A DNA stretch of 37,239 nucleotides, taken from positions 1 through 37,239 of the forward strand of contig JAFLUL010000014.1 of the NCBI GenBank assembly GCA_022508845.1, written 5' to 3'. The DNA is from Oscillospiraceae bacterium (GTDB lineage Bacteria > Bacillota > Clostridia > Oscillospirales > Acutalibacteraceae). Positions 3,104 to 37,239 of this stretch are shown piece by piece; the stretch's first letter is position 1, and every line of letters starts with the position of its first letter. The notes under the pieces are model-generated. The model worked only from the letters and a program-made list of their open reading frames with translations, was not told the origin of the DNA and searched no databases. The position numbers and the translations under genes were made by a program.

Positions 3104-3237
3104 TTCGGAATTCGGAAAGCGTGATTCTGAATTAAATAAGAGCTTGGAGCTTATATTTCGGAACCTGCGGTTTGCAATATAAAAATCCAAAATCGTTTGC
3201 GATTTTCCCGGAATGCCGGATAACGCATTCTGAATCA
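3101..3237. repeat. Intergenic element, long copy, supplying the GH2 stop codon
   Basis: It begins TGATTCGGAATTCGG and ends CGCATTCTGAATCA. Inside are ATTTCGGAACCTGCGG and the hairpin core AAAATCGTTTGCGATTTT (about 3189-3206). The order ATTTCGGAACCT, hairpin, CCGAAT-type end is the same as in the copies at 13519-13586 and 24747-24919. The first TGA is the stop codon of the GH2 gene. Confidence 0.75.
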
Positions 3238-3273
3238 AATTATATTTCTTGTGTTCCTGCCAGAGGAGAAAAA

Positions 3274-5580
3274 ATGTACCGTTTTAAGAAATTCATTTCA
3301 TTATTTCTCAGCGTTTTTATGTTCTTAGGAACAGCTGCTTTGATCCCGTTTTCGGCGTTCGCGGCGGGGGAAATCTCCCTCGGCAAAGAGCAGACGGTTA
3401 ACATCGGCAGCGAAGGGAAACAGGTTTATTTTTCCTTTATCCCCGAAAAAACTCTCGTTTATGAGTTTATTTCGGTGTCTGAAGCTGTTGACCCCTGCGG
3501 CTATATTTATAACAGCGACATGGAACTGATGTATTCGTGCGATGATAAGGAAGAAGAGGAAAGCCTTGATTTCAGCATTGCAGCAAGACTCATCAAGGGC
3601 AAAAAATATTATCTTTCGGCTGCTCTCTTTGAGGGGAGCAAGGGTTCGTTTAAGGTTTTGCTCAGAGCATACGAGGGAATATTTGTTGAGGACTTTACCG
3701 GCGATATAGAGGTAAAACCCGGCGAGAGCTTTGTTTTAACAACCAATGCCTATTCAAACTCGGGCGAGCTAAATTATCAGTGGGATATGGAATATTTATC
3801 CTTCGATAAAAACGGAGAATATTTTTGGGAAGAGAGGATCCTTCAAGACGGAAAATCAAATTCTCTGAGCATTGCAAAAGCAAAGATGTCCGGGCATATC
3901 AAGTGCATTATTTCGGATCCCCACGGGAATCATAAAGACGTGTGGTTTGAGGTTCATCTTAACAGCGGACTTAAAGCTGAAATTCAGGGGAATGAATTCA
4001 GGGATGTTGTTCCCGGCAGCAATGAAACTCTCAGCGTTTGCGCTTCTTCCGAAGTAGGCTCAGTTCACTATAAATGGTATAAGGAATATAAGGTATATAC
4101 TGCGCGAGGGGATTATGATTGGGAGCGCAAGCTCATTTCGGGCGAAGAAAAAAACAGCTTAACTCTCGTTTCCCCCTCCGAGGGCGCGAGCTATTGCTGC
4201 CTTGTTTACGATGACTATAATAATATTGAGGAAATCTGGTTTTATGTGAGTATGAACAGCGGTTTTACCGCCTCAGCTGCGGGAAACACCTCGCTCAGCG
4301 TTAAACCCGGTTCCTCCCTTACCCTAAGCGTCAACGCGGCGGTAAATAAGGGAAAAATCCATTATCAGTGGTATAAAAAGCAAAAGTCCGCCGATTCGGA
4401 GCGCTATGTAATAGAAAAGCTCTTCAGCGGCACCTCAAAGGATATTACGCTTAAAAACCTGAAATACTGCGCCGATTACGTATGCTTTGTTTCGGATGAT
4501 TACGGAAACTTTGAATATGTTTTGTTTTCTGTAAGCATTTTGAGCGGATTCAAAATAAATTCGCCCCATATAACCGAGCTTACTGTTGGAGCAGGGATTT
4601 CGGCAACTCTCTCGGTTAACGCCGTATCGGATGCGCCTCTTTCATATCAGTGGGGAAGCAGCTACGGCTTTGAAAATAACGGCGCGTTTGAAAACGGAAC
4701 AGGCCCACAGTTTACAACCCCCTCTGTTTATGACTGTTCCGAGATTTATTGCCGCGTAACGGACGCCTGCGGAAACGAAGACACCGTTTGGTTTTATTTG
4801 ACCCCCGACAGCGGTATGGTTCATAAATTCGACGAACCGTTCTGGATTTGGAACAGCGATTATTCCTCCGCAAAAGCGAAGTTTGTTTGCAAGTCCGAAA
4901 GCGCGCATATTCAATTTGTTGACGCTGAAATAACAAAAACCGTAACGTCCGCAACCTGCACTTCAGACGGCAAAACCGTTTATACCGCCTCCGCTTCCTT
5001 CTATGGCAAAACCTACACCGCCTCAATATCGGTTGCCGGCGCGAGTGCGTCAGGTCACAAATGGAACAATGGCATTGTAACCCGATCCGCAACCGAGATA
5101 AAAGAGGGCGTTAAAACCTTCACCTGCTCCGTTTGCGGTACAAAGAGAACCGAAAGCATTCCAAAACTCAGCGTCAGTGATCTCGGCGCCTCCGAGCTTA
5201 CGGAGAAAGACGGATATTTGTATGTCAGGCCGGAGCTCACCTGCGCCGAGATAATAAAGACCGCCGGAAAAGGCTCAAAGCTGCTGAAACCAAACGGCTC
5301 TCTTCTTAAATCGGATGAAAAAGCAGGCTCAGGTATGACGCTCATTAAGACGAACGGAACGATTCTTACCGTAATAGTTAAGGGAGACTGCGATTGCGAC
5401 GGCGAAATAACCGCCTCGGATGCGCGCATTGCGCTGAGAATTGCCGTTGATCTTGAAAATCCCACTCCGCTGCAAAAAACAGCCGGACTTGTTGACAGCT
5501 CAAAGGCTGAAATAACCGCCTCGGATGCGCGCCTTATCCTTCGCGCAGCGGTTAATCTTGAAACATTAAATCTCTATTGA
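3274..5580 (+). CDS. Secreted Ig-like repeat protein with C-terminal dockerin
   Basis: A 768-residue exported protein. The start at 3274 is chosen because AGAGGAG lies just upstream and a signal peptide follows at once (MYRFKKFISLFLSVFMFLG, cleavage near AFA-A). An upstream in-frame ATG at 3172 lies in a repeat element. Residues about 34-138 resemble a bacterial pre-peptidase C-type beta domain (DLxx-rich, GKKYYLSA). Four Ig-like repeats of about 95 residues follow (about 139, 231, 329 and 424), each with a YQW or YKWY core and ending in xxSGxxx. At about 535-625 there is a CxxC-bearing domain (ASGHKWNNG, CSVCGTKR). The end (about 703-768) is a type I dockerin pair: GDCDCDGEITASDARIALR and a second unit AEITASDARLILRAAV; only the first keeps the full acidic calcium loop. 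No catalytic domain is visible, so it probably acts as an adhesin or a cellulosome-type component. Confidence 0.85.
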   Translation: MYRFKKFISLFLSVFMFLGTAALIPFSAFAAGEISLGKEQTVNIGSEGKQVYFSFIPEKTLVYEFISVSEAVDPCGYIYNSDMELMYSCDDKEEEESLDFSIAARLIKGKKYYLSAALFEGSKGSFKVLLRAYEGIFVEDFTGDIEVKPGESFVLTTNAYSNSGELNYQWDMEYLSFDKNGEYFWEERILQDGKSNSLSIAKAKMSGHIKCIISDPHGNHKDVWFEVHLNSGLKAEIQGNEFRDVVPGSNETLSVCASSEVGSVHYKWYKEYKVYTARGDYDWERKLISGEEKNSLTLVSPSEGASYCCLVYDDYNNIEEIWFYVSMNSGFTASAAGNTSLSVKPGSSLTLSVNAAVNKGKIHYQWYKKQKSADSERYVIEKLFSGTSKDITLKNLKYCADYVCFVSDDYGNFEYVLFSVSILSGFKINSPHITELTVGAGISATLSVNAVSDAPLSYQWGSSYGFENNGAFENGTGPQFTTPSVYDCSEIYCRVTDACGNEDTVWFYLTPDSGMVHKFDEPFWIWNSDYSSAKAKFVCKSESAHIQFVDAEITKTVTSATCTSDGKTVYTASASFYGKTYTASISVAGASASGHKWNNGIVTRSATEIKEGVKTFTCSVCGTKRTESIPKLSVSDLGASELTEKDGYLYVRPELTCAEIIKTAGKGSKLLKPNGSLLKSDEKAGSGMTLIKTNGTILTVIVKGDCDCDGEITASDARIALRIAVDLENPTPLQKTAGLVDSSKAEITASDARLILRAAVNLETLNLY

Positions 5581-24993: not shown

Positions 24994-26832
24994 ATGAAAA
25001 AATGTTCCGCAAAGAAATCAGAATATTATTCCTGCGAAACAGCGGCGTTTATTCTCGGTGCGGCGCTTTTTATTCTGTTTTTTTATTCCGCAAGGCTGGG
25101 AGTGCCGTCTCCCGACGAATCCTTTTATTATACTGTTGCGCAGCGCATAATTAACGGAGACAGGTTGATAATTGACGAATGGAATCTCACTCAGTTTTCT
25201 CATATTCTGAGCGTCCTTCCCGTTTGGGCTTTTACAAAGCTCACCGGCTCAACGGACGGGATAATTCTGTTTATGCGCTATGTTTTTATTGGCATTGATC
25301 TTATCTTTTATGCTTATATGTGCCGAAAGCTTCGTCCGCTTAAGTGGGCGGGAGTTATATCCGCGTTTATATTCTGCGCTCTTATCCCGCAAACGGTTTT
25401 TTCGATATGCTATTTTACCTCCGCTTCTATGTCCTTTATGGCTCTTTGCCTGATACTTATTGCCGATACGAAAAAGAAAAAACCGGTACAGCTCATCATG
25501 TCCGGAGTTATTTTGGCCGCGGGTATACTCAGCGAGCCGATGCTTATTTTCGTTTTTGTTTTATATGCGATAGGCGTTATTGTGAGCGAGGCTCTGAAAA
25601 AAAGGAATACATATCTCGGGGATTATGATTTTCTTTTGAACAGGCGAACCTTCCTTTATCTCAGTGCGGGGGCTTTTGTTGTTTTTGTTTGTTTTATGAG
25701 CTATCTCTGTTTTTCGGGCAGCCTTGCCGAAATAAAAAAGGTTCTTCCGTATCTGTTTACCGGGGTTGAATATAATGCCGAATCCTTTTTTGACATAGGA
25801 AAACTGTATACCGCCGTCTCGTATTACGGCCATCTGCCCGTTTCGCTGCTGGTGCTTTGCGCTGTTTTGTCGGCTGTGTTTTATTTTATAAAAAAGGAAA
25901 ATAAGAAAATAAGATATGCTCTCTTTGCTATGTCCTGCGTTTGTATGGTATGGTGTTATATCCACACCTGCTTTATCAGAGGGATTGCCGGAGTTCATAT
26001 TTATATTACAAGCCATGGCTTTCTCCTTCCCGTTATTTCGCTTATCTGGTTTTTGCTCTATAAGGAGAAAAACCGCGGCTTAAACGCGCGGCTGTTTTCG
26101 GTTTTGATCATCGCCTTTTTATACAGCGCAATGGTTGATCTCTCGTCCGAGGCAGATCTCGGAACGGGAGGAATGATAGCGCAGATCGCAGGAGTATACT
26201 GCTTTATAGGGCTGCTCAGAGGATTGATTGCTGAATCAAAGAGCATTCGGATTGAAAACAAAAAAAAGCTCGCCGAAAAAGGATTTTTTGCGGCGGCGGG
26301 GTTGTTTGCGTGTATGTTTATTGTATGCGCTGTGGGTTGGCACGGCTCTTTCATTGTTATGGAAACGGTTCGCAAGCCGATAGAATATGTTTTTTCGGGC
26401 GGCGGCAGCTTTGAGCCCGAAAAGCTGACCAAAGGGCCGTATAAAAATCTTAAAACTTCTCCTCATATTGCCCGAATTTACAACAATACCCTTGAGGACT
26501 GCTATGAAATTGAGAAAAACGCCCGGGAAGGCAAGCTTGCCGTTCTCGGACTTGAGCCGTTTGTTTATTTGCAAACCGATATGCCCTACGGCGTTTTCAG
26601 CGCGTGGTATGAGGATGAAATCCAGCGTTTAGCGGACTATTGGGCGATTTTTCCCGAAAACAGACCCAGCCGTATTTATATTCCGTTTTACGATAATTTC
26701 TTTTTCAGGCAGCGCGATATTATAAAGGGACAGTCCTTTTCGGATTATCTTGAGTTCCTCTCAGGTGTTTTTGATTTTGATATTCAAACCGGCAAATCCG
26801 GCTATATCCTCGATGTTAAGGACCGGGAGTAA
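24994..26832 (+). CDS. Polytopic membrane protein, GT-C glycosyltransferase-like
   Basis: A 612-residue protein with about 11 predicted membrane helices between residues 15 and 450 and a soluble C-terminal domain (about 455-612). After the first helix comes RLGVPSPDESFYYTVAQ, an acidic loop (Asp-Glu) in the place where GT-C enzymes (GT39/GT83/PMT-like) carry their catalytic acid, followed by GDRLIIDEWN. This topology suggests a lipid-linked-sugar-dependent transferase acting outside the membrane, but I cannot name the family. GAGGGG lies upstream of the ATG. It converges with the next gene, with six bases between stop codons and no terminator. Its C-terminal domain has no motif I recognise. 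Confidence 0.6.
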   Translation: MKKCSAKKSEYYSCETAAFILGAALFILFFYSARLGVPSPDESFYYTVAQRIINGDRLIIDEWNLTQFSHILSVLPVWAFTKLTGSTDGIILFMRYVFIGIDLIFYAYMCRKLRPLKWAGVISAFIFCALIPQTVFSICYFTSASMSFMALCLILIADTKKKKPVQLIMSGVILAAGILSEPMLIFVFVLYAIGVIVSEALKKRNTYLGDYDFLLNRRTFLYLSAGAFVVFVCFMSYLCFSGSLAEIKKVLPYLFTGVEYNAESFFDIGKLYTAVSYYGHLPVSLLVLCAVLSAVFYFIKKENKKIRYALFAMSCVCMVWCYIHTCFIRGIAGVHIYITSHGFLLPVISLIWFLLYKEKNRGLNARLFSVLIIAFLYSAMVDLSSEADLGTGGMIAQIAGVYCFIGLLRGLIAESKSIRIENKKKLAEKGFFAAAGLFACMFIVCAVGWHGSFIVMETVRKPIEYVFSGGGSFEPEKLTKGPYKNLKTSPHIARIYNNTLEDCYEIEKNAREGKLAVLGLEPFVYLQTDMPYGVFSAWYEDEIQRLADYWAIFPENRPSRIYIPFYDNFFFRQRDIIKGQSFSDYLEFLSGVFDFDIQTGKSGYILDVKDRE

Positions 26833-26838
26833 ACTTTT

Positions 26839-28179
26839 TCAGTGCACATAATAAATATATGCAGTTGAAGCGAAGCTCAGAAAAAGAATGAGTAACACCG
26901 CGATTTTTTTCGGCGCGGAGCTTACGCACTTTTTTGCCGCGTCACACAGCAGTGGTTCATCGCTTTTAAGAACTGCAAACAGCAGCATGAAATTTGAGAA
27001 AAACGATGCGCCCGCCCAGCGGGAGGTGTCGGTTGACGCTATAACGGAAATTATCAGCATTAAAGGCTGGAGCATAAAAACAAGATATGGTAGCCGGCTT
27101 TTTTTATCGGTTCTTTTTAATATGTATATCCAGAAATACAGGATAATTCCGAAAACCGGGAAGGTTGACAGGGAATAAAGTAAAACCTTTTTCAGTCTTA
27201 TTCTTTCGGCGGCGTAGCTTACTAGGAATTTTATAAAATCCGCGGGAGCGGAGTAGTTCACCCCCTGATAATCGCCGTAAATATAATAGGTAAAGTATTC
27301 TTCAAAAAGCCCGGTTGCTCTTGCGTCGGGGTATTTTGAGAGCATATATTCGTAAAGCTCAGACGCGCTCATCTTTACTCCGTATTTTGAAAAGAACATA
27401 AGATACACCGTAAGGGCAATGCTGCCCGCTGCGGTAAAGCAAAAAAACGCCGCGCGGAGGGCTCTGCCTTTTTTGTTCTTTACAATATAATACAGCTCAA
27501 CGGAGAATATCATTGTGAGATAAGCAAGAACAAACTGATAATGAAGGATAATTCCGGTAAAGCAAATAACGGGCGTTAAGATAAACGCGCCTTTTTTGTC
27601 GGAAATATAAATATAGAAGACAGCAAGCAGCAGGTTATAGGTGTCAAGTATGCCGTAGTTCATAACGTTGGGCATAACAGTGTGGTGCGAGAGGGCAAAA
27701 AAAACAAATAAAACGCAGAGAAGCGGGCTTTTTTTGAGCCACGCTTTTTTAAATGCCGCCGCCGCCAGAAGAGCCTGCAAAATCAGCGATATCCATAAAA
27801 CGGCTTTAGTCAGCGCGAGGAAAAAAACGAAGGACACTTTATCTGTAAAAAGCGAAATTATATGCCCTATGAGCGCGCGGGAAACAAAGCCGACGCTGTA
27901 ATCTATCAGATAAAACTGCACCGTCCTCGTTGCATACATCGGGAAATTGTTAAAAAGGTAATTATAGCTTGTAATGGAGTATGTAAAGAGCATAAGTCCC
28001 AGCATAATAACTGCCAAAAACAGGGCGCTGTATTTATATCTTATAAAAGTGTCAGCTTTTTCCAGAGCAGTTTTGCCGGCATTCAGGGCAAACTGCCGCG
28101 GGCGTTTTTTTTCGATAAACGCCGTGATTTTCTGTTTGAGCGAGGGCTTTTTTGTTTTTTTTGATGATTTTTTGCTCAT
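26839..28179 (-). CDS. Polytopic membrane protein of unknown function
   Basis: A 446-residue protein I do not recognise. A very basic N-terminal tail (MSKKSSKKTKKPSLKQK and EKKRPRQF) of about 47 residues should lie in the cytoplasm. Roughly ten membrane helices follow. The stretch FYLIDYSVGFVSRALIGHI after the first helix has a D-x-x-x-G-F-x-x-R-x-L-x-G pattern that looks conserved, and an external loop follows KYGVKMSASELYEYMLSKYP. The overall architecture resembles GT-C-type or polymer-assembly membrane proteins, which would fit the neighbour, but that is inference. The ribosome binding site is weak. The promoter at 28218-28247 is divergent from that of the giant secreted protein. Confidence 0.7.
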   Translation of the reverse strand: MSKKSSKKTKKPSLKQKITAFIEKKRPRQFALNAGKTALEKADTFIRYKYSALFLAVIMLGLMLFTYSITSYNYLFNNFPMYATRTVQFYLIDYSVGFVSRALIGHIISLFTDKVSFVFFLALTKAVLWISLILQALLAAAAFKKAWLKKSPLLCVLFVFFALSHHTVMPNVMNYGILDTYNLLLAVFYIYISDKKGAFILTPVICFTGIILHYQFVLAYLTMIFSVELYYIVKNKKGRALRAAFFCFTAAGSIALTVYLMFFSKYGVKMSASELYEYMLSKYPDARATGLFEEYFTYYIYGDYQGVNYSAPADFIKFLVSYAAERIRLKKVLLYSLSTFPVFGIILYFWIYILKRTDKKSRLPYLVFMLQPLMLIISVIASTDTSRWAGASFFSNFMLLFAVLKSDEPLLCDAAKKCVSSAPKKIAVLLILFLSFASTAYIYYVH

Positions 28180-28397: not shown

Positions 28398-28427
28398 TTG
28401 ACATCGTTGCTTTGGGTGCTGTATAAT
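28398..28427 (+). promoter_or_regulatory. Consensus promoter and leader of the giant protein gene
   Basis: TTGACA (28398-28403), an 18-base spacer and TATAAT (28422-28427), both hexamers perfect. Transcription should start near 28434, giving a leader of about 95 bases. The leader holds two ATAGTATnCCC-type repeats (28438-28457) and a small hairpin, GACAAA (28467-28472) with TTTGTC (28480-28485). AAGGAG at 28515-28520 lies nine bases before the ATG. Between the two divergent promoters (28248-28397) I see only AT-rich sequence. Confidence 0.85.
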
Positions 28428-28529
28428 AGGGATGATATAGTATACCCATAGTATCCCTAAAAATGGGACAAAAAAAGGGTTTGTCTATAATTTTTGCGAA
28501 AAACCGCAAACAAGAAGGAGTGTTACTTT

Positions 28530-31500
28530 ATGGGAACAAAGGCTAAGCTTTCAACAAAAGTTATTAGCGTATTCCTGTCGGCTCTGATGGTTTTGAGCTG
28601 CGCTTATGCCGCGCTGCCGGGCCTTGCGCCGAAAGCTAAAGCCGCTTCTGCCGAGGAAAAAGCCTGGCAGAATCTGAGCGACGCTTTTGCGTCTGCCGTA
28701 AACGGCGGCTATCTGAGCACCAAAGATTGGTCGGCTATAACATCCTCCGACGGCACCGTCACCGTGACCGACGGTACCGTTAACGGCTATGCCTATAATA
28801 TTGTGGCAGCCATCGGAGAGCTGATAAAGCTTATTGGCGAAGGAAAACACAATGCCGAGCTGCGTGAAACAATTAAGCAAACGCTCTCCCGTTCGCCATA
28901 CAATATGCCGCTCAATACATATCAGGTGAATTTCCTGAACCGCATTCTTGACGTTTCGGGAAAATACGGCGATTATACTCCTGACAGCATCTGGAACGGC
29001 ACTGTTTCGGATATGGAGGCGAATCTCACCGCGCAGACCATAACCGTTGTTGCAACGCGCGAAGAGAACGCCGCAATAATTTCGCAGTTTAACACCGTTG
29101 ACGAGATAGACGCCGCAGGGTATAAGATCGAAATGACCTATACTATCAAGCTTACTGCCGAGGCAGTTAAGTGCGACTCCTCAAACGGAGCCGAGACCGG
29201 AGCCTATTATGAAAACAGCAAAATTGAGGCCGGCGGCGAAAAGGTTGACATCTCCTCAGGCGTTAAAACAAACCTTCAGAATATAGGGGCTTATTTAACC
29301 TATGTTGGCAGCACCGCCTTCAAGCCCTATTTTGATAAGTGGTATAATGACGGCGGCGAAGTGAACACCGTTTCGCTCTATGCTATGACAACCGAGCAGA
29401 TAGCCGCTCTCGAAGCGGACTATAACGACGTTTATGTTAAAGTTGACATAGGCGATCAGTATTTCGTTGAAGAGTTCATTGGCAGGATGAATTATGAGGC
29501 TCATCAGAGATTTGTTGACGCTGCGGTCGAAGCTCTTAAGGTCGTTAATTATAAGGACTATGTTGCGTGGCTTGTTAACGGAACCCCTCTCGGAAACGGC
29601 ACTCGCAACCGCGACGACTATAAAACCAGCGATCCCTCCTCGATTGCCGCCGTTATTGAACAGGCGAGCGCCTTCAAAGAGGGCCTTGAAACCGCGAATT
29701 CCGATGCGCTTGCAAGCCTTGCAAACGTATATCCGGGTTTTGACGCTTACGGCGAATATGACGTAACAAACTCCAAAACTTATTATATGAACTTTGATAA
29801 CTATATCCGTTATCTGAGCAGCTTGCTTTATAACTTCTATCTCCAGGAGATAAAGGCCGCCGCAACAACCCTTCTTAATAACGGCGCGTCCACAACCTAT
29901 GTTTTCTCGAATGAGACCTCCGATTTCTTCAACCTGCTTTCGGGCGTTGTTGGAAGCGGATATCAGACGGGCTCAAACTATGTTCCCACCTCCGACTCCA
30001 GAGTTGATCCCGATAAGACCTATTATACTCCCAGCGCAACCTATTCCTATGCCGCAACCTCTGATTCCGAGATTGACGGCAGCAAGCATTATTTTACAAA
30101 CTGGGAAAAGGTTGAAAACCCCGTTGCAGCAGACCTCGGAAGTTATTATGAGGATGTTGAGGTGTTTACCTACGCCCCCACCGAGGACACCGAACTTGCT
30201 GACGGCAAAACATATTATACCTTTGCCGACGGCGTTTACACCGCTGTTGAAGAGCCCGCCGCCGAGAATTTAGAAACCTATTATGAGCGCACCGGCTCCT
30301 ATCATACATATCTGCCCACAGCCGATGAGGCTCTGAACGCTTCAAAGGCATATTATACTCAGGGCAGCTCATATGCCGTTGTTGCTTCTCCTTCCGCGGC
30401 ATATATCAGAACCTACTCCGAGAGAACGGTTGTGAGCTATAATTATCAGCTCACCTCCGATAAGGATATAATGTCCGGCAAAACTTATTACACAAAATCC
30501 GGATCTGTTTACACCCCGGTTGAAGAGCCCGTTGCCGACGATCTCGGATCATATTATGAAATCGTTTTCGTTGCAGTTGAAAGCCCTCTCACCTCGTATC
30601 TGTTTGATTATTACGAGCTTGTAGGCGCTTTCTACGGTCTTAAGGGCGTTGGAAAAGGCGAATATGTCGAGGCAAACTATCAGAATACTTATTATAAAAC
30701 AAGCGATACTTCCGTTGTTCCCGGCAAGACCTATTATGTTTATAATGAGGCCTCCGGAGTCTACACTCCCGTTACCTCTCCCTCAAACGCTGCTTTAGGC
30801 GACTACTATGAAAGAGCGCAGTGCCCGATTGACGACACCGACCTTTCCGCTCTTTACACCTTCTTCAACACCGCTGTTGATATGATGAATCGCGCCGCGT
30901 CTTACGGCGTTAACGTAAATAATTATCTGAGCGAATCTCTCCAGCTTCAGATCCGCGATATGAGCACGCTTCTCTATAACGAGCAGGTTCTCCGCGGCAG
31001 AGTAACCGAGGCTTTCCTTCAGGCGTATCAGCCCGCTGCCGATCTTATGGCGGGCTATATCAAGGGCGGCAAGAGCATTTCTCAGCTCTATGCCGATCTC
31101 AAAACCCTCGAAGAAAAGCGCACGGCCCTCAATAATTCCTACAGCTGGTTTAAGGATGACCCGCGTGACGCCGCTATGGCCAATTTCATAACCGAGCTTT
31201 ACTGCGAGATCTATGACCGCGTTCAGGCTCAGTATGTTGAAATTCAGAATCTTTACCGCGAATACGGAAACGTTAATGTTCGCAACTATTATCAGCTTCG
31301 CAGAAACATTGACCGCATAAACGGCCTCACCGGCACCTATAACGGCGTTTCCGTTTCAATTCTAAACTTTATAAGCAGCAGCTACGCCGCAGGCAAAATT
31401 TCCGGCGTAAACGCAACCGGCTTTACCCGTAACGCAACTAATCTTTCATATCTCTATTATAATGAGACAACCGGAATATACGGCTACGGCACTCTCTTCA

Positions 31501-34500
31501 GCACGATCAATACCAGAGTTAACAGCTTTAACACAACCAACGTTGCAGGTACGGTATCTTCAAATCAGTATACCCATAATAACATCACCCGCAACACTAT
31601 GGATGCCGACTGGGTACACAACAAAGCCTTTACCGCGTATTTCACCTCCAAAAACACTCCAACCTCCGGCAACTATGCAAGCGTTGCTTCAACGGTAAAT
31701 AAGCTTGACGCCTTCCTCAAGAGCGAAGACTTTGTTAAGCTTCTCGGCGTTGACGAGCAGGGCAAGGGCATAACAACGCTCACAGGCTTTATTCAGGATA
31801 TTCTTGCCGAGAATCTCTTCTCGGACGAGATGCTTGACACTATTTTAGCGCTGTTATTCCCGCTGCTTACAAGCATATTCGATCAGGTACTTCCCGAAAT
31901 GCTCGCTAAAAATATTCAGAACAAAAATGTTGCCGACCTTGCCGGCGATACGGGCAGCGTTGTTCTCGAAGGCGGAAGAATGTGGTTCTATTTCGGCGGC
32001 TATACTGTAGCCTGGGAAGAGGACGCAAACGGCAGAATTATAACAACATACACCGGCGGTCAGCCCGGAAGCCACCTTACAAACACATTCCAGTCAATAA
32101 CCTCAAATAAGGCTCAGCTTTATATTTACCCCTCAACCCTCGGAAATTATTTCTCAACTATAACCACCTCCGCCGGCATAACGCAGGCTCAGGCGAACCT
32201 GCTCCACACCATAGGTAATTCTCTTAAGGCTGTGGGCGATCAGACTATGACCTACACCACCTATAAAGACAGAAACGCGTGGGATAAGTTTAAGAATGCC
32301 GACGGCGATTTTGAGTTCAACGGCGGCAAGGGCTTTAACTGGGGCGTTGACGCGCAGACCACCTTTAACGGAAAGTATAGTCAGTTTAAGTCTATGCTCG
32401 GCGCAATGCTCAGCTCGGCTATAACAATTCTTCGCGCTCTCTTCGGCAACACGACATTCACCCTCTCGCTCGACGGTAACTACAGCACCGGCGGCAACCT
32501 TCTCTATGCATATATTTACGACCTCACGGTTGGATATCATCTTATTACCGACATTAAAACCAGCGGTAACTGGCTGCGTGCGGAAGGCATCAAGGCAGAC
32601 CTGACCATACAGCCGCTGAACCTCTATCAGGGACTTTGGATACCGATTATGGAGGATCTTCTCGGTATGAACGCCGGAACCGACGGCGTATTTACCTGGG
32701 GCGTTCCGAGCGTTACGGGCAACTTTACCGGACCGCAGCTCGCAGGATACCTGCTCGATCCCGTATATCAGCTCATTCTCGCGGTGAGCGCAAATCCCGT
32801 GCAGTCGGTATGTAAGCTTCTGCCGAACCTTGCCTATCATCTTCTGGACGGTACGATAAACAACCTTCTTGACGTAAACATTTTAATTCATCTCGCAATC
32901 AAGGACCTTGATGTAACAGACGCCGGCGGCGGTCTCGGAGGCGACCTGCTCGACTGGAGCTGGGTAAAGAATATGATCATAGGCATTGCCTCTGATTCGC
33001 TCAAATTCGATATCCCCGTTGCCCTTGGAAGTATGATAAATCTTGACGATATGCTCGGCTTCAGCCTCAGCGATCTCAACTCGATTCTTGCGGGCGTTAT
33101 CGGTATGATAAGCAGCGATGCCGAATATAATCTTCCCGGCATAGGCACCGGCCGCCTTGCAACTATGTTTAAGTCCGGCGGCTTTACCTCAAATGCCGCA
33201 ACAAACGGCGTCCGCCCGAACTCAAGATCCAGAACATATATCAAAGCCGATGTTGAATATGTTTTCTACGGCATCTTCAGCTGGCTCTTCCGTGCCGTTC
33301 AGAATAAGGGCGGTCTTGCGGATATTCTCGCAATGGTTGAATCCATTTCCGGTTCTTCGCTCGGAGGCAGCCTTCCGTCCATAGTTTATGCTCTTGTTGA
33401 GGGCATTGAAAGCGCAGACCTTGCGTTTGCCGCTCTTATTGAGCTTCTCAACGAGCCTAAGTATGACGTTGCAACCTTCAATTGGTATGACGTTGCAGGT
33501 TCCTCCAACAAGCCCACCATAAACTGGAACACAACAGCATTCACCTATCTTGACTACAATAATAAGTGGACTAAGGAAAAGGCCGATTATATTTACGGTA
33601 ATATGGATAACATAGTTAACGCAGTTGTTAATATGATATCCCCCGAGTCTCTTGCCGAATTTAACGGCGACGTAAACGTTTGGCTCAGCAAGTTTATAAA
33701 CTCGATGTTCACAAACGAAGGCGTAATGAACGTTATTGAGATGGTAACAATGCTCGGCGACGCCCTCAAGGGAGCAAACGGACTTGTAAAGCTTCTGCGC
33801 CAGCAGATAACAAGCTCCAACGCAACCGACCCCGAGATGAACCTCTATGCGTGGTATAACATTTTCGGTTATAATTATGACGCCTACCACAACGTCACCC
33901 TCGGAACAAACGAGTTCATTGCCTATAACACAATATCCAATCAGGTTTATGTTTATCAGGCGGTTCCAACCGATGAAAGCGAAGTTGTTGATCTTACCAA
34001 AACCGGAACCTTCACCTGGAAGATAGTTCAGGCATATCCCGTTGCTCCGGGTGAGAGAATTCCTTACCAGATAAACGGACAGAACTTTGTAAGAACCAGT
34101 ATAGTTCCTTATGACACCTCCGTAAAAACCGACAAATATCAGGTTTATGAGGATCTCTTCTCAAAGGTTCGCTGGACTAAAGCAAACGATCCCAACGGCG
34201 GAAACGACCCGTACTGCACATGGGAAGTTAAGCTTACCTCCGAAATAATCGGCCGTCTTGCCGATAACGGTACAACTCTCAAGAGAATCGGCTCCGGGGG
34301 AGCATACACCGGCTATTATGACAGCGGAAAGAGCTATAACGTAGGCGACTATTATCCGCTTACCGACGGCGGCAGCATGGAAATCCCCGGCTCAGACAAT
34401 GCCCGCGCTGTTTTCACCGCCATATTCTCAGAGCTTATAGGCCCGTTTGCAAACCTCTTCTCATTTGTTCTCCGCGGAACGGATCTCAATCTCTTCGGCA

Positions 34501-37239
34501 ACAATCTCAAAATTCAGGGCTATTCAACCTATAATAACGCCATTATCCCGCTGCTTGAGGCATTCGGAGTTTACGGTCTTAAGACCTCCGATCAGTTTGA
34601 AAGCTATGCAGTGGCTAACGGTACACGCGCGGCGTTTGACTACCTTGTAAACGAGCTGTTCGGCGCTCTCGATGATCTTTTGACCGACGACAGAGTTTAC
34701 GATGAAAAAGGCAACGTGGTTTCCGGCAAGGGCGCCTTCCAGAAGCTTGTTGACATTTTGCCGCACCTTTACTACTACCTGCAGAGCGACGGTATGACCG
34801 TTGTTGTGAAGAACCTGCTTATGTTTGTGTGGCAGCTTCTTGACACTCTTCGTCCTATAGTAAACATTGATCTTGACAACGTTATCCACGCTCTTCTCTG
34901 CCGCTTCCTCGGCTATGTTTACGATGACACCGCCGCAGGCTATCAGTCTAACCTCTTAACAAGCGAGCTGCTTGACCTCCTGGGCATTTCCGCCCCGACC
35001 TATACCTCCTCCGCCGCAACGCGCGACAAGGAAAAGGTTGACGCCATATTTGCCTTCTCGCTTAAAAACCTCACCCTTCAGGGAATGTATTCGCTTGTAA
35101 CCGGTATAACCGGGCTTAACCTCTATCCTCTTGTTTACGCGCTCGAGGGTATGTGTCAGACCGCGCCTCCGATTGCTCTTACCTACAGCGCCGATCAGAC
35201 CGAGCCTTATAAATATACGAGCTACAGAGTTCCCAACACCACAGCAACAACCTATAAGACCTATACCGTAAACTTCAGCGGTCAGGACACCATAACCTTA
35301 ACCCTCTCTGCGCTTATCGACATTATCAAGTATGAGGGCAACGCTTCCGCTCTTGACGAGATGTTCGGCACAATTACTGAGCTTATCCCCGGAGCTTCGA
35401 ATATGCTCACAGGCGAAGGCATTCAGGGACTTATTCAGGCAATTGTTACCATATTTGATGACCAGCCCTACGGAGTTGAAATTCAGCGTCCGAATTGGGA
35501 CTACATCTTTGAGGGTAAGCTTGTTATCTTCTCCGACGGCAATTCAAAGCTTTGGGAAGATATAGTATGCACCGAAGAAACGACCGAAATCTCTATTTCC
35601 AGATGGGCTGAGCTTTATAATATCGTTCAAACTCCCAACTACGATTTCAGCCGCTATCACAAAGACACATTATATAATCTTGAATATTTAACAAGCTGGA
35701 CCGAAAACGTTGCAAAGGCAACCTACGGAATGCTTGAAGGTGTTCTTGATTATGTTGTTTCGCTCGCCGCGGAGAGCATATCAAAACGTCTCGGCGTTAA
35801 CATAACAACCTTCAGCGAGCTTGTTGACGTTCTTCTTAGCGAAATGGTCTTCACTCCCGAGCTTATGATAAGCCTCCTTGACCTGCTCGCAAATGTTTAT
35901 ACCTATATTCCCGATGAAATTCTTGAAGCATTAAACCACCTGCTCACCGATAACGCTGAGGAGGGTGCGATAGTTGATATGTTCGCCTGGAGAGACGCGG
36001 GCTATATCGTATTTGACTATCCCTGGAATTCCGACGGAACTCAGGATACCTCCAAAGATATGATCTGGCAGGCAAACCGCAATCACGATTGGTTCGTTGA
36101 AGGAAAGCCCGGCTATATTGAGGATGAATCCACCTTTATAGACGCAATCGGCGATCTTCTCGCTCCTGCCGGAACCCTCTTCGCCCTTATCTTCTTAAAC
36201 GAGGACTATAATCTTCTCAATTCACTTGCCAAGAATTCCCAGGGCAATAACGACAGCATTGTCTTAAATGGTACCGCCGCTTATGCAACGGCCTTAGTTC
36301 CGCTGTTTGAGGCTCTCGGGCTTGACCTTTCGAACTATAAGCCCGAAAAGTATAACAACGGCGACGGAACCTATAACGGCTCGCTGTTTGTTAACGACCT
36401 TGTTGAAATCGTTGACACCCTGCTTAAGGACGTTATCTACGGTCCTGAGGGTGCAAACGGAGAACGCGCAGGCGGCCCGATTAAGTGGATAATAAAGAAC
36501 CTGCCCAATATAATTTACTTCATTAACGCGGACGGCATAAAGGCCTCCATAAACAACGTTTTCGGCGCGCTCAATTCCATTATAGGCGCAATTGAAACAA
36601 TAATTGACCTGCCCGTGGATCTTCATAACCTCCTTGATTCCGGTTTGGATGTTACAAACCTCTCAATGGAAGGTCTCTTCGGTATGCTCTATACGCTTAC
36701 AAAGAGCTATAACGATGACGGCAGCGTTATTCCCGGCCTTTATATGAGCGATTCGCTTATGAGCTACATTAAGAATATCTATATCGGTAAGCTTGAGGCG
36801 TTTGTTTCCGCCAACGGCTATCAGAGCTTCCGTATGGTTTATTCCGAAACAGAGCAGGAGCACGATATGATAACCGTTCTCCTTGCTATGATCCTTGAAT
36901 ATGCAACCGATTCCGGCACATTCTATGACAACGTTGACAGCCACGGCAACGAGATAGAATACAACAACGCCGATGTTCTTGACAGACTTCTCTTCGGCGG
37001 CTCCGATATGGAAGGCCTTATCGGTCAGGTTATCCACGCGCTTCGCAATCCCGAAGGTCTTGCCGTAGCCGATATGGACTGGAAATATTTTGATGAGGAA
37101 TTTGATCTCTCCGCAGTTAAAGATCATCCGATAAGAGTTGACGCTTATGCCTATCGCTATCTGAACTGGACCACCGAATGGACATATTCAAAGGCATCAA
37201 CCGCCGCGGATGAGTTTGAAACTCTCGTTCTTCAGGCTC
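28530..37239 (+). CDS. Giant secreted repeat protein, 3' end beyond the window
   Basis: One uninterrupted frame of 2903 codons with no stop before the window edge. The start has AAGGAG nine bases upstream and a classic signal peptide (MGTKAKLSTKVISVFLSALM, cleavage near AKA-A at 38). Residues about 40-485 are mixed helical. Residues about 486-763 hold about five short repeats built on GKTYYT...VYTPVEEPVADDLGSYYE. Residues about 765-1285 are helical. From about 1288 to the end, three long divergent modules start at about 1288, 1958 and 2536. The protein is rich in Leu, Asn, Tyr and Ala and has few cysteines. I see no enzyme motif, LPXTG, S-layer homology or dockerin in the visible part; such a domain could lie beyond the edge. 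A surface or extracellular structural role is likely but not shown. The promoter is near perfect, suggesting abundant product. Confidence 0.9.
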   Translation, partial: MGTKAKLSTKVISVFLSALMVLSCAYAALPGLAPKAKAASAEEKAWQNLSDAFASAVNGGYLSTKDWSAITSSDGTVTVTDGTVNGYAYNIVAAIGELIKLIGEGKHNAELRETIKQTLSRSPYNMPLNTYQVNFLNRILDVSGKYGDYTPDSIWNGTVSDMEANLTAQTITVVATREENAAIISQFNTVDEIDAAGYKIEMTYTIKLTAEAVKCDSSNGAETGAYYENSKIEAGGEKVDISSGVKTNLQNIGAYLTYVGSTAFKPYFDKWYNDGGEVNTVSLYAMTTEQIAALEADYNDVYVKVDIGDQYFVEEFIGRMNYEAHQRFVDAAVEALKVVNYKDYVAWLVNGTPLGNGTRNRDDYKTSDPSSIAAVIEQASAFKEGLETANSDALASLANVYPGFDAYGEYDVTNSKTYYMNFDNYIRYLSSLLYNFYLQEIKAAATTLLNNGASTTYVFSNETSDFFNLLSGVVGSGYQTGSNYVPTSDSRVDPDKTYYTPSATYSYAATSDSEIDGSKHYFTNWEKVENPVAADLGSYYEDVEVFTYAPTEDTELADGKTYYTFADGVYTAVEEPAAENLETYYERTGSYHTYLPTADEALNASKAYYTQGSSYAVVASPSAAYIRTYSERTVVSYNYQLTSDKDIMSGKTYYTKSGSVYTPVEEPVADDLGSYYEIVFVAVESPLTSYLFDYYELVGAFYGLKGVGKGEYVEANYQNTYYKTSDTSVVPGKTYYVYNEASGVYTPVTSPSNAALGDYYERAQCPIDDTDLSALYTFFNTAVDMMNRAASYGVNVNNYLSESLQLQIRDMSTLLYNEQVLRGRVTEAFLQAYQPAADLMAGYIKGGKSISQLYADLKTLEEKRTALNNSYSWFKDDPRDAAMANFITELYCEIYDRVQAQYVEIQNLYREYGNVNVRNYYQLRRNIDRINGLTGTYNGVSVSILNFISSSYAAGKISGVNATGFTRNATNLSYLYYNETTGIYGYGTLFSTINTRVNSFNTTNVAGTVSSNQYTHNNITRNTMDADWVHNKAFTAYFTSKNTPTSGNYASVASTVNKLDAFLKSEDFVKLLGVDEQGKGITTLTGFIQDILAENLFSDEMLDTILALLFPLLTSIFDQVLPEMLAKNIQNKNVADLAGDTGSVVLEGGRMWFYFGGYTVAWEEDANGRIITTYTGGQPGSHLTNTFQSITSNKAQLYIYPSTLGNYFSTITTSAGITQAQANLLHTIGNSLKAVGDQTMTYTTYKDRNAWDKFKNADGDFEFNGGKGFNWGVDAQTTFNGKYSQFKSMLGAMLSSAITILRALFGNTTFTLSLDGNYSTGGNLLYAYIYDLTVGYHLITDIKTSGNWLRAEGIKADLTIQPLNLYQGLWIPIMEDLLGMNAGTDGVFTWGVPSVTGNFTGPQLAGYLLDPVYQLILAVSANPVQSVCKLLPNLAYHLLDGTINNLLDVNILIHLAIKDLDVTDAGGGLGGDLLDWSWVKNMIIGIASDSLKFDIPVALGSMINLDDMLGFSLSDLNSILAGVIGMISSDAEYNLPGIGTGRLATMFKSGGFTSNAATNGVRPNSRSRTYIKADVEYVFYGIFSWLFRAVQNKGGLADILAMVESISGSSLGGSLPSIVYALVEGIESADLAFAALIELLNEPKYDVATFNWYDVAGSSNKPTINWNTTAFTYLDYNNKWTKEKADYIYGNMDNIVNAVVNMISPESLAEFNGDVNVWLSKFINSMFTNEGVMNVIEMVTMLGDALKGANGLVKLLRQQITSSNATDPEMNLYAWYNIFGYNYDAYHNVTLGTNEFIAYNTISNQVYVYQAVPTDESEVVDLTKTGTFTWKIVQAYPVAPGERIPYQINGQNFVRTSIVPYDTSVKTDKYQVYEDLFSKVRWTKANDPNGGNDPYCTWEVKLTSEIIGRLADNGTTLKRIGSGGAYTGYYDSGKSYNVGDYYPLTDGGSMEIPGSDNARAVFTAIFSELIGPFANLFSFVLRGTDLNLFGNNLKIQGYSTYNNAIIPLLEAFGVYGLKTSDQFESYAVANGTRAAFDYLVNELFGALDDLLTDDRVYDEKGNVVSGKGAFQKLVDILPHLYYYLQSDGMTVVVKNLLMFVWQLLDTLRPIVNIDLDNVIHALLCRFLGYVYDDTAAGYQSNLLTSELLDLLGISAPTYTSSAATRDKEKVDAIFAFSLKNLTLQGMYSLVTGITGLNLYPLVYALEGMCQTAPPIALTYSADQTEPYKYTSYRVPNTTATTYKTYTVNFSGQDTITLTLSALIDIIKYEGNASALDEMFGTITELIPGASNMLTGEGIQGLIQAIVTIFDDQPYGVEIQRPNWDYIFEGKLVIFSDGNSKLWEDIVCTEETTEISISRWAELYNIVQTPNYDFSRYHKDTLYNLEYLTSWTENVAKATYGMLEGVLDYVVSLAAESISKRLGVNITTFSELVDVLLSEMVFTPELMISLLDLLANVYTYIPDEILEALNHLLTDNAEEGAIVDMFAWRDAGYIVFDYPWNSDGTQDTSKDMIWQANRNHDWFVEGKPGYIEDESTFIDAIGDLLAPAGTLFALIFLNEDYNLLNSLAKNSQGNNDSIVLNGTAAYATALVPLFEALGLDLSNYKPEKYNNGDGTYNGSLFVNDLVEIVDTLLKDVIYGPEGANGERAGGPIKWIIKNLPNIIYFINADGIKASINNVFGALNSIIGAIETIIDLPVDLHNLLDSGLDVTNLSMEGLFGMLYTLTKSYNDDGSVIPGLYMSDSLMSYIKNIYIGKLEAFVSANGYQSFRMVYSETEQEHDMITVLLAMILEYATDSGTFYDNVDSHGNEIEYNNADVLDRLLFGGSDMEGLIGQVIHALRNPEGLAVADMDWKYFDEEFDLSAVKDHPIRVDAYAYRYLNWTTEWTYSKASTAADEFETLVLQA
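29985..30818 (+). repeat. Short repeat block in the giant protein (TYYT repeats)
   Basis: About five units of 35-55 residues. Recognisable cores are VDPDKTYYTPSATY, LADGKTYYTFADGVYTAVEE, LNASKAYYTQGSSYAVVAS, IMSGKTYYTKSGSVYTPVEE and VVPGKTYYVYNEASGVYTPV. Each is followed after 8-12 residues by a closing YYE or YSE. The alternation of acidic start, TYYT strand and YYE strand suggests small beta units in tandem. Units two and four are most alike at protein level. Confidence 0.8.
32391..37239 (+). repeat. Three long divergent modules in the giant protein
   Basis: Modules begin near 32391, 34401 and 36135. Landmarks recur in order. First: a hydrophobic stretch followed by WIPIMEDLLGMN, AIIPLLEAFGVYG or ALVPLFEALGLDL. 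Then CKLLPNLAYHLLDGTINNLL, DILPHLYYYLQSDGMTVVV or KNLPNIIYFINADGIKASI. Near the end: YLDYNNKWTKEKADYIYG, NLEYLTSWTENVAKATYG or RYLNWTTEWTYSKAS. The third module is incomplete at the window edge. Spacing is about 670 and 578 residues. Confidence 0.7.

What the first reader, a model, noticed from the sequence alone, without database searches (positions are those of the whole stretch)
28530..37239. Giant exported protein of at least 2903 residues with no recognised domain
The frame stays open for 8.7 kb, has a signal peptide, a strong ribosome binding site and a near-perfect promoter, yet shows no enzyme motif or known anchoring domain in the visible part. A protein this large and apparently strongly expressed is a heavy investment, which points to a surface layer, adhesin or matrix role that has not been described to my knowledge.
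Basis: partly seen in the sequence, partly recalled or inferred. Interest (0 to 1): 0.75.

Follow-up and report, generated by a model that had tools for sequence, protein, structure and literature searches.

The report
Giant exported repeat protein with tail
A gut bacterium of the Clostridia carries the front part of a giant exported protein built from large, ordered repeat units; complete relatives end in a short sticky helix that this lineage also puts on many other, unrelated proteins and that probably holds them at the cell surface.

Summary
The frame 28530-37239 is open, under purifying selection, and cut by the contig end. It has a consensus promoter, a ribosome-binding site and an export-signal-like start, and no Pfam, NCBIfam or PDB match above cut-off. 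It is probably the first ~40% of a ~7,000-residue protein: the closest complete relatives have 7,197 and 7,235 codons and 12 diverged units of ~450 residues; the window ends in unit 3. Units keep their order between species (12 of 12, 12 of 12, 18 of 18, 8 of 8 in four pairs), so this is an old ordered array.
By eye, 54 of 57 closed relatives end in one amphipathic, aromatic, cationic helix. Profiles of this tail also match proteins outside the family, mostly at the very C-terminus: 359 hits in 26 of 26 genomes of the genus (not all inspected), against single hits in 5 of 298 other genomes of a phylum sample. No library model describes it. I propose a C-terminal membrane anchor or sorting signal and a long, largely helical surface rod. 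Anchoring and function are inferred. Structure prediction never ran (server busy, 26 attempts).

The parts
28398..28427 (+). sigma-70-type promoter, TTGACA-18-TATAAT, 12 of 12
   Evidence: best match 10-12 of 12 with 18-base spacer in the window and 8 relatives
28431..28490 (+). conserved leader element GATGATATAGTATACCC..., able to fold as a hairpin in RNA
   Evidence: with up to 1 mismatch found in 7 of 14 genus genomes, in each in front of a giant gene, and only there in 6 of the 7 (G012 has two further sites)
28515..28520 (+). ribosome-binding site AAGGAG
   Evidence: read; GAAGGAGTGTT before the start in 8 of 9 sequences, window included (G002 has AAGGAGTG)
28530..37239 (+). giant exported protein, first 2903 residues, cut by the contig end
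28530..28643 (+). putative Sec signal peptide (residues 1-38, AKA|A), by eye; a lipobox-like reading around Cys24 is not excluded
28644..31670 (+). N-terminal part without units (residues 39-1047), with 'TSD...GKTYYT'-type repeats from about residue 487 to 790 (by eye)
   Evidence: no family above cut-off
31671..33626 (+). repeat unit 1 (residues 1048-1699, two profile matches)
33603..35648 (+). repeat unit 2 (residues 1692-2373, two profile matches)
35685..37238 (+). repeat unit 3 (residues 2386-2903); seed of the unit profile and first row of alignment A3 (80 rows)
   Evidence: alpha-helix-like periodicity
24994..26832 (+). 612-residue membrane protein (12 hydrophobic segments) with an invariant DE(S/A)xY motif, possibly a GT-C glycosyltransferase; beside some giant genes in relatives
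   Evidence: no Pfam or PDB support
26839..28179 (-). 446-residue membrane protein (9 hydrophobic segments), neighbour of some giant genes in relatives
   Evidence: no Pfam match

Best explanation
The window holds the front ~40% of a ~7,000-residue exported protein of twelve ordered ~450-residue, mostly helical units behind a unique N-terminal part. Complete relatives end in a ~25-residue amphipathic aromatic helix. I propose that after Sec export this tail lies in the outer face of the cytoplasmic membrane and holds the protein there, so that the unit array forms a long rod through and beyond the wall with the N-terminal part outermost, serving as a surface scaffold or adhesin. Shown: ORF, selection, family, unit order, the tail of relatives, and its occurrence at the C-terminus of proteins outside the family, many with a signal-peptide-like start. 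Inferred: membrane binding, helical rod shape, orientation, surface role, and that the window's own missing C-terminus has 12 units and the tail.
For: Open frame, dN/dS about 0.15. Relatives of 7197, 7235, 6951 and 7696 codons with 12 counted units each. Units are colinear 12/12 (G007-G024), 12/12 (G007-G012), 18/18 (G022-G014), 8/8 (G013-G015), 11/12 (G007-G004). Alpha-type periodicity significant in 32% of 257 overlapping windows of one unit, beta-type in 1%. Tail by eye on 54 of 57 closed relatives; best hydrophobic moment per tail 0.61-0.83 in 54 of 57, net charge 0 to +5. Tail matches lie at the C-terminus: 36 of 43 loci within 3 residues of the stop; leaving out the 13 unit-family loci, 24 of 30; 33 of 34 genus loci within 5 (partly the same loci). 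Carriers outside the family include InlB-type repeats, a purple acid phosphatase with choline-binding repeats, and an esterase-type hydrolase. No hydrophobic 19-mer above cut-off in the window protein but the signal peptide. Two of four own-genome paralogs have another membrane-type anchor instead: C1 a lipobox-like N-terminus, C139 a C-terminal hydrophobic helix; C106 and, weakly, C118 have the tail.
Against: No structure, localisation or binding data; the fold of a unit is unknown. The window's own C-terminus is missing and was not found elsewhere in the assembly. Complete relatives hold 1-7 further hydrophobic 19-mers each that pass the same cut-off (5 relatives), so membrane contact elsewhere is possible. 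Amphipathic helices can also self-associate or bind proteins. In other genera of the family only 17 of 26 inspected tail matches lie within 5 residues of the stop. The genus has sortases (26 of 26), so other anchoring routes exist. A Cys in the signal peptide of 33 of 42 members leaves an N-terminal lipid anchor possible. The paralog argument rests on four proteins.
Confidence: 0.5

Rival explanations
1. Released matrix protein: the giant is secreted and the tail drives self-assembly (helix bundles) of a network outside the cell, not membrane binding.
For: The tail has hydrophobic and aromatic faces fit for bundling. The giant proteins of Apilactobacillus kunkeei were found in cell-free supernatant (passages of PMC12863079).
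Against: The tail sits on smaller proteins of other kinds too, among them hydrolases; two paralogs of the same unit family carry membrane-type anchors instead.
Confidence: 0.2
2. The tail is a sorting or processing signal read by a dedicated, undescribed machine (export, cleavage or covalent attachment), in the manner of LPXTG or the CTERM domains.
For: A C-terminal homology region confined to one lineage, many carriers per genome, otherwise unlike each other, as GlyGly-CTERM proteins are usually alike only in their C-terminal region (passages of PMC3237569).
Against: That paper's inference of unknown sorting systems was made for regions with motif, transmembrane helix and basic end; this tail lacks that layout. 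No partner gene is known and none was sought.
Confidence: 0.2
3. The giant is a lipoprotein anchored at the N-terminus by the signal-peptide Cys.
For: 33 of 42 motif-bearing N-termini have a Cys in the signal peptide; the window reads VLSC.
Against: The Cys position wanders, some relatives (G004, G021, G022, G014) lack it, and what follows is hydrophobic with a later AxA site (by eye).
Confidence: 0.1

Closest known systems
Apilactobacillus kunkeei Giant1-5 (PMC12863079; passages seen)
   Same: Signal peptide, 3,000-8,000 residues, long imperfect internal repeats (13 of 366 residues in Giant2), helical repeats predicted in Giant1-3, conserved C-terminal segment
   Different: Their C-terminus holds DUF5776 domains; none was found here. 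Here units are ~450 residues with positional identity between species, and the end is an amphipathic helix
E. coli PBP5 C-terminal amphipathic anchor (PMC2909392; passages seen)
   Same: Exported protein held at the outer face of the cytoplasmic membrane by a C-terminal amphipathic helix (there shown, here proposed)
   Different: There one enzyme and its kin; here one tail on many unlike proteins, including giants. Likeness of mechanism only
LPXTG, PEP-CTERM, GlyGly-CTERM, MYXO-CTERM sorting signals (PMC3237569 passages; PMC11980579 start of abstract in listing)
   Same: C-terminal region shared by otherwise unlike proteins, lineage-specific, many per genome
   Different: No signature motif + transmembrane helix + basic cluster; no known sorting partner
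Fibrillar adhesins with stalk and head (PMC9210967; start of abstract in listing)
   Same: Proposed layout of head, long repeat stalk and C-terminal anchor
   Different: No known stalk, adhesive or anchor domain found

Membership tests
Apilactobacillus-type giant proteins | long internal imperfect repeats behind a signal peptide | tested here: met
   signal peptide by eye only
Apilactobacillus-type giant proteins | C-terminal DUF5776 domains | tested here: not met
   no Pfam match at E 0.1 on P0002 or L074
LPXTG / sortase substrates | LPXTG-like motif near the C-terminus | tested here: not met
   0 of 57 closed relatives within the last 60 residues
CTERM tripartite sorting signals | signature motif, transmembrane helix, basic cluster; known model | tested here: not met
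   amphipathic rather than transmembrane by calculation; no NCBIfam CTERM model on 10 carriers or 24 tails
CTERM tripartite sorting signals | joint presence with a sorting enzyme across genomes | not tested
   no phylogenetic profiling was done
C-terminal amphipathic membrane anchors (PBP5-like) | C-terminal helix with high hydrophobic moment | tested here: met
   (calculation from sequence; best 18-residue window of each tail)
C-terminal amphipathic membrane anchors (PBP5-like) | membrane binding of the tail | not testable with these tools
   needs experiment
Known wall-binding domains (SLH, choline-binding, dockerin, LysM) | a matching Pfam domain | tested here: not met
   on the window protein, P0002 and one complete relative (L074)
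[quoted passage not shown]

The most novel reading that the evidence does not exclude
The tail is the address label of an undescribed surface-sorting or anchoring system of this clostridial lineage, with about 14 matches per genome on average, among them giant proteins of up to ~10,600 residues whose units each have a fixed place and task.
Probability: 0.3. Interest if true: 0.82.

Novelty: new variant of a known kind. Interest (0 to 1): 0.6.

Why it matters
If the tail is an anchor or sorting signal, much of the surface proteome of an uncultured, gut-dwelling Clostridia genus becomes readable from sequence, and a non-covalent alternative to sortase anchoring becomes testable with one reporter fusion. 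The giant array with positionally conserved units is also a clean case for asking why bacteria keep 20-30 kb genes in fixed order rather than letting repeats turn over.

Tried and rejected
Known family or domain: rejected after Pfam, NCBIfam, PHROGs and PDB sequence searches; the weak matches there lie below cut-offs, hit single members, or are short matches to families of unknown function. Recent tandem amplification: rejected. Viral origin: one profile pattern scanned in viral contigs matched 30 stretches, none encoding a relative; one pattern only, so weak. Missing C-terminal part elsewhere in the assembly: searched with P0002, the last 1541 residues of the G007 relative; its matches in the unit part are to paralogs or to the window's own units (top hit 32% identity, 24-44% in all; the short 69% match is the tail of another protein), so no orthologous piece was seen. 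Rfam family in the window: none. Consensus RNA structure of the leader: single-sequence folds are strong (z -2.2 to -5.5 in 10 of 10) but the alignment of 9 supports only a 4-pair stem, one pair with a two-sided change, so a DNA operator is as possible. Weak Pfam matches of the 24 tails include amphipathic membrane-binding helices (NS5A membrane anchor E 0.012, PSMalpha 0.12, FtsA_C 0.14, CAP18_C 0.73; one member each; that these bind membranes is partly recalled) but also phiKZ_IP in 8 of 24 and four other names; taken as likeness of composition, not kinship. The four phylum-sample loci L280-L283 gave no match to a loose tail pattern, so their position relative to a stop was not determined. 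Papers: the listings showed no description of this unit family or tail; I read no paper whole, and most subscription journals and preprints are not in that library.

Outputs that failed: searches (file name; coordinates), script crashes after useful output (the N-terminus part was redone).

Full report
WHAT IS THERE. The frame from ATG 28530 to the window end is open for 2903 codons. The window is the complete contig C46 of its assembly (2.36 Mb in 157 contigs, 85% complete), so the gene is cut by the contig end. Upstream lie a 12-of-12 sigma-70-type promoter, AAGGAG at 28515-28520 and a signal-peptide-like N-terminus. Against the G007 relative the aligned 2838 codons have 66% protein identity, dN 0.27 and dS 1.78: a real protein under purifying selection. 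Its C-terminal continuation was not found in the rest of the assembly.

FAMILY AND SPREAD. P0001 finds relatives in 29 of 59 genomes searched at E<=1e-5: 25 of 26 of its own genus (own genome included; G019 is the miss, G009 and G020 have one weak match each), 4 of 10 other genera of its family, 0 of 23 genomes of other families of the order. A scan of one genome for each of 84,980 species gave 101 relatives, 80 kept, 69 loci, titled as uncultured or metagenome-derived Clostridia, Oscillospiraceae, Ruminococcaceae, Ruminococcus sp. and the like; 38 of the 69 titles name a ruminant gut site. That scan used two short peptide patterns and therefore misses distant relatives. Closed frames range from 899 codons (own-genome C139) to 10,643; four 12-unit relatives have 7197, 7235, 6951 and 7696 codons.

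UNITS. A profile started from window residues 2386-2903 finds the same ~450-residue unit many times in each protein: up to 19 profile matches in the two proteins of about 10,500 residues, five in the window. Counting only matches covering more than 300 profile positions, G007, G024, G012 and G004 each have 12, G022 and G014 18, G013, G015 and G002 8. Of 155 such units 150 have their nearest neighbour in a different protein (the set holds close relatives, which favours this); the last unit is nearest to another last unit in 20 of 22 cases. In eight pairs that I chose, order is kept position by position 12/12, 12/12, 18/18 and 8/8 in four; G007-G004 11/12; G014:C41-G006 5/6; pairs of different unit number (G007-G002, G014:C41-G017) are only partly colinear. 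These are old, individually conserved positions. Mean hydrophobicity along A3 (80 rows) shows alpha-type periodicity at p<0.05 in 32% and beta-type in 1% of 257 overlapping windows; a fold could not be predicted. No Pfam, NCBIfam, PHROGs or PDB family explains the protein, the units or the complete relative tested.

THE TAIL. Of 57 relatives with a stop codon in the fetched DNA (some from overlapping or nearly identical contigs), 54 end, by eye, in xxxNGxIxFFQKIxxFFxKIxxxFKNLF or close to it; L131 and L137 are off-pattern and L129 ends inside a unit. By profile (E<=0.1), 37 of 43 proteins closed at both ends, 38 of them and five from other genomes fetched (L094 and G033 are one protein), have it within 15 residues of the end; the six without are L129, L131, L137, the own-genome paralogs C1 and C139, and G034. 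The best 18-residue window of each tail has a hydrophobic moment of 0.61-0.83 in all but L090, L129 and L137, and net charge 0 to +5. None of the 57 has an LPXTG-like motif in its last 60 residues.

THE TAIL IS NOT CONFINED TO THIS FAMILY. Profile A4 (tails of unit proteins) found 12 places in the own genome and 4-30 in each of 12 genus genomes at E<=0.05. Of the 43 loci taken, which include a few repeats of one place, 36 have the match within 3 residues of the stop, six within 11-13, and one is cut by a contig end; by my count 13 of the 43 are unit-family proteins, and of the other 30, 24 lie within 3. Of 13 own-genome carriers printed, three are cut at the N-terminus and 8 of the other 10 begin, by eye, with a signal peptide; carriers in other genomes were not checked for this. 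Pfam sees Listeria-Bacteroides (InlB-type) repeats in two, a purple acid phosphatase with choline-binding repeats, an esterase-type hydrolase and DUF6273 in one each of ten scanned, and nothing in the other five. No model covers the tail. Profile A5, built from 24 tails of carriers outside the unit family, gives 359 hits in 26 of 26 genus genomes at E<=0.001 (sum; unit proteins included, most hits not inspected), hits in 10 of 59 other genera of the family, 8 of them with 3-10 hits, single hits in 5 of 116 other genomes of an order sample that included some same-family genera, and single hits in 5 of 298 other genomes of a phylum sample. Of 65 loci inspected, 51 have the match within 5 residues of the stop: 33 of 34 from the genus (about five of them unit proteins, and partly the same places as), 17 of 26 from other genera of the family, 1 of 5 from the order sample. 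Some tails are preceded by CxxCGxxH.

HOW IT MOST LIKELY WORKS. The window protein has no hydrophobic 19-mer above the chosen cut-off except in the signal peptide; the five complete giant relatives tested have 1-7 scattered ones inside the protein. The tail is the only feature seen at the C-terminus that could hold the protein. Two paralogs in the same genome have a membrane-type anchor in its place: C1 a lipobox-like N-terminus and no tail, C139 a C-terminal hydrophobic helix with a basic end; two others, C106 and, weakly, C118, have the tail. This exchange is the best indirect evidence that the tail is an anchor, and it rests on four proteins. PBP5 of E. coli shows that a C-terminal amphipathic helix can tether an exported protein to the outer face of the cytoplasmic membrane (passages of PMC2909392). 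I therefore favour membrane tethering with the unit array reaching outward and the N-terminal part outermost. These last steps are inference.

NEIGHBOURS AND REGULATION. Two membrane proteins lie upstream in the window (12 and 9 hydrophobic segments). The 612-residue one is beside giant genes in G007, G013, G015, G022 and G014; the 446-residue one in G007, G024, G016, G013 and G015. In the species-genome loci each was found in 5, while 34 loci had more than 2.5 kb upstream, so they go with only part of the family. The 612-residue family has an invariant DE(S/A)xY motif in 6 sequences that recalls GT-C glycosyltransferases; this is from memory and no library match supports it. Directly downstream of the -10 box stands GATGATATAGTATACCC; with up to one mismatch it occurs in 7 of 14 genus genomes, in front of a giant gene in each, with no match of the reversed control; G012 has two more sites, identical to each other over 65 bases, one of which was seen to lie inside a coding frame. 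It can pair with downstream sequence, but covariation is weak.

KNOWN OR NEW. Giant repeat-built surface proteins are known; the Apilactobacillus giants are the nearest described case I found (passages of PMC12863079), and huge bacterial proteins are mainly peptide/polyketide synthetases or surface proteins (passages of PMC11573180). C-terminal sorting regions are known too; lineage-specific ones with the motif-helix-basic layout have been taken as signs of undescribed sorting systems (passages of PMC3237569), a layout that this tail does not have. What I did not find described, within the searches named, is this unit family, the positional conservation of its array, and this tail. I rate it a new variant of a known kind.

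Noticed in passing
28431-28490: Leader element GATGATATAGTATACCC after the -10 box, nearly unique to the giant gene in each genome that has it; could be an operator or an mRNA 5' hairpin.
   Followed up: partly
24994-26832 and 26839-28179: Two membrane proteins beside the giant gene, also beside several relatives; the first has an invariant DE(S/A)xY motif reminiscent of GT-C glycosyltransferases (recalled, no library match).
   Followed up: partly
L049/L050 (G022:C13) and L061-L063 (G014:C33): Open frames of 10,643 and 10,516 codons of the same family with 18 colinear units. G017 shows a 10,643-codon frame too, so G017 and G022 may be close kin.
   Followed up: partly
L057 (G000:C1) and L060 (G000:C139): Short paralogs that carry a lipobox-like N-terminus (C1) or a C-terminal hydrophobic helix (C139) in place of the tail.
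   Followed up: partly
L206, L208, L239, L249, L257 and others: A sub-type of the tail preceded by CxxCGxxH (such as CKYCGKVHTGFFGK...), perhaps metal-binding or a distinct recognition site.
   Followed up: no
3172-5580: 802-residue exported-looking protein with a twofold dockerin-like end, judged by eye only; a similar end on a neighbour of the giant in G014:C33.
   Followed up: no
29988-30899 (residues 487-790): 'TSDxxVxxGKTYYT...YYE' repeats, by eye, in the N-terminal part, unlike the rest of the protein; origin unknown.
   Followed up: no
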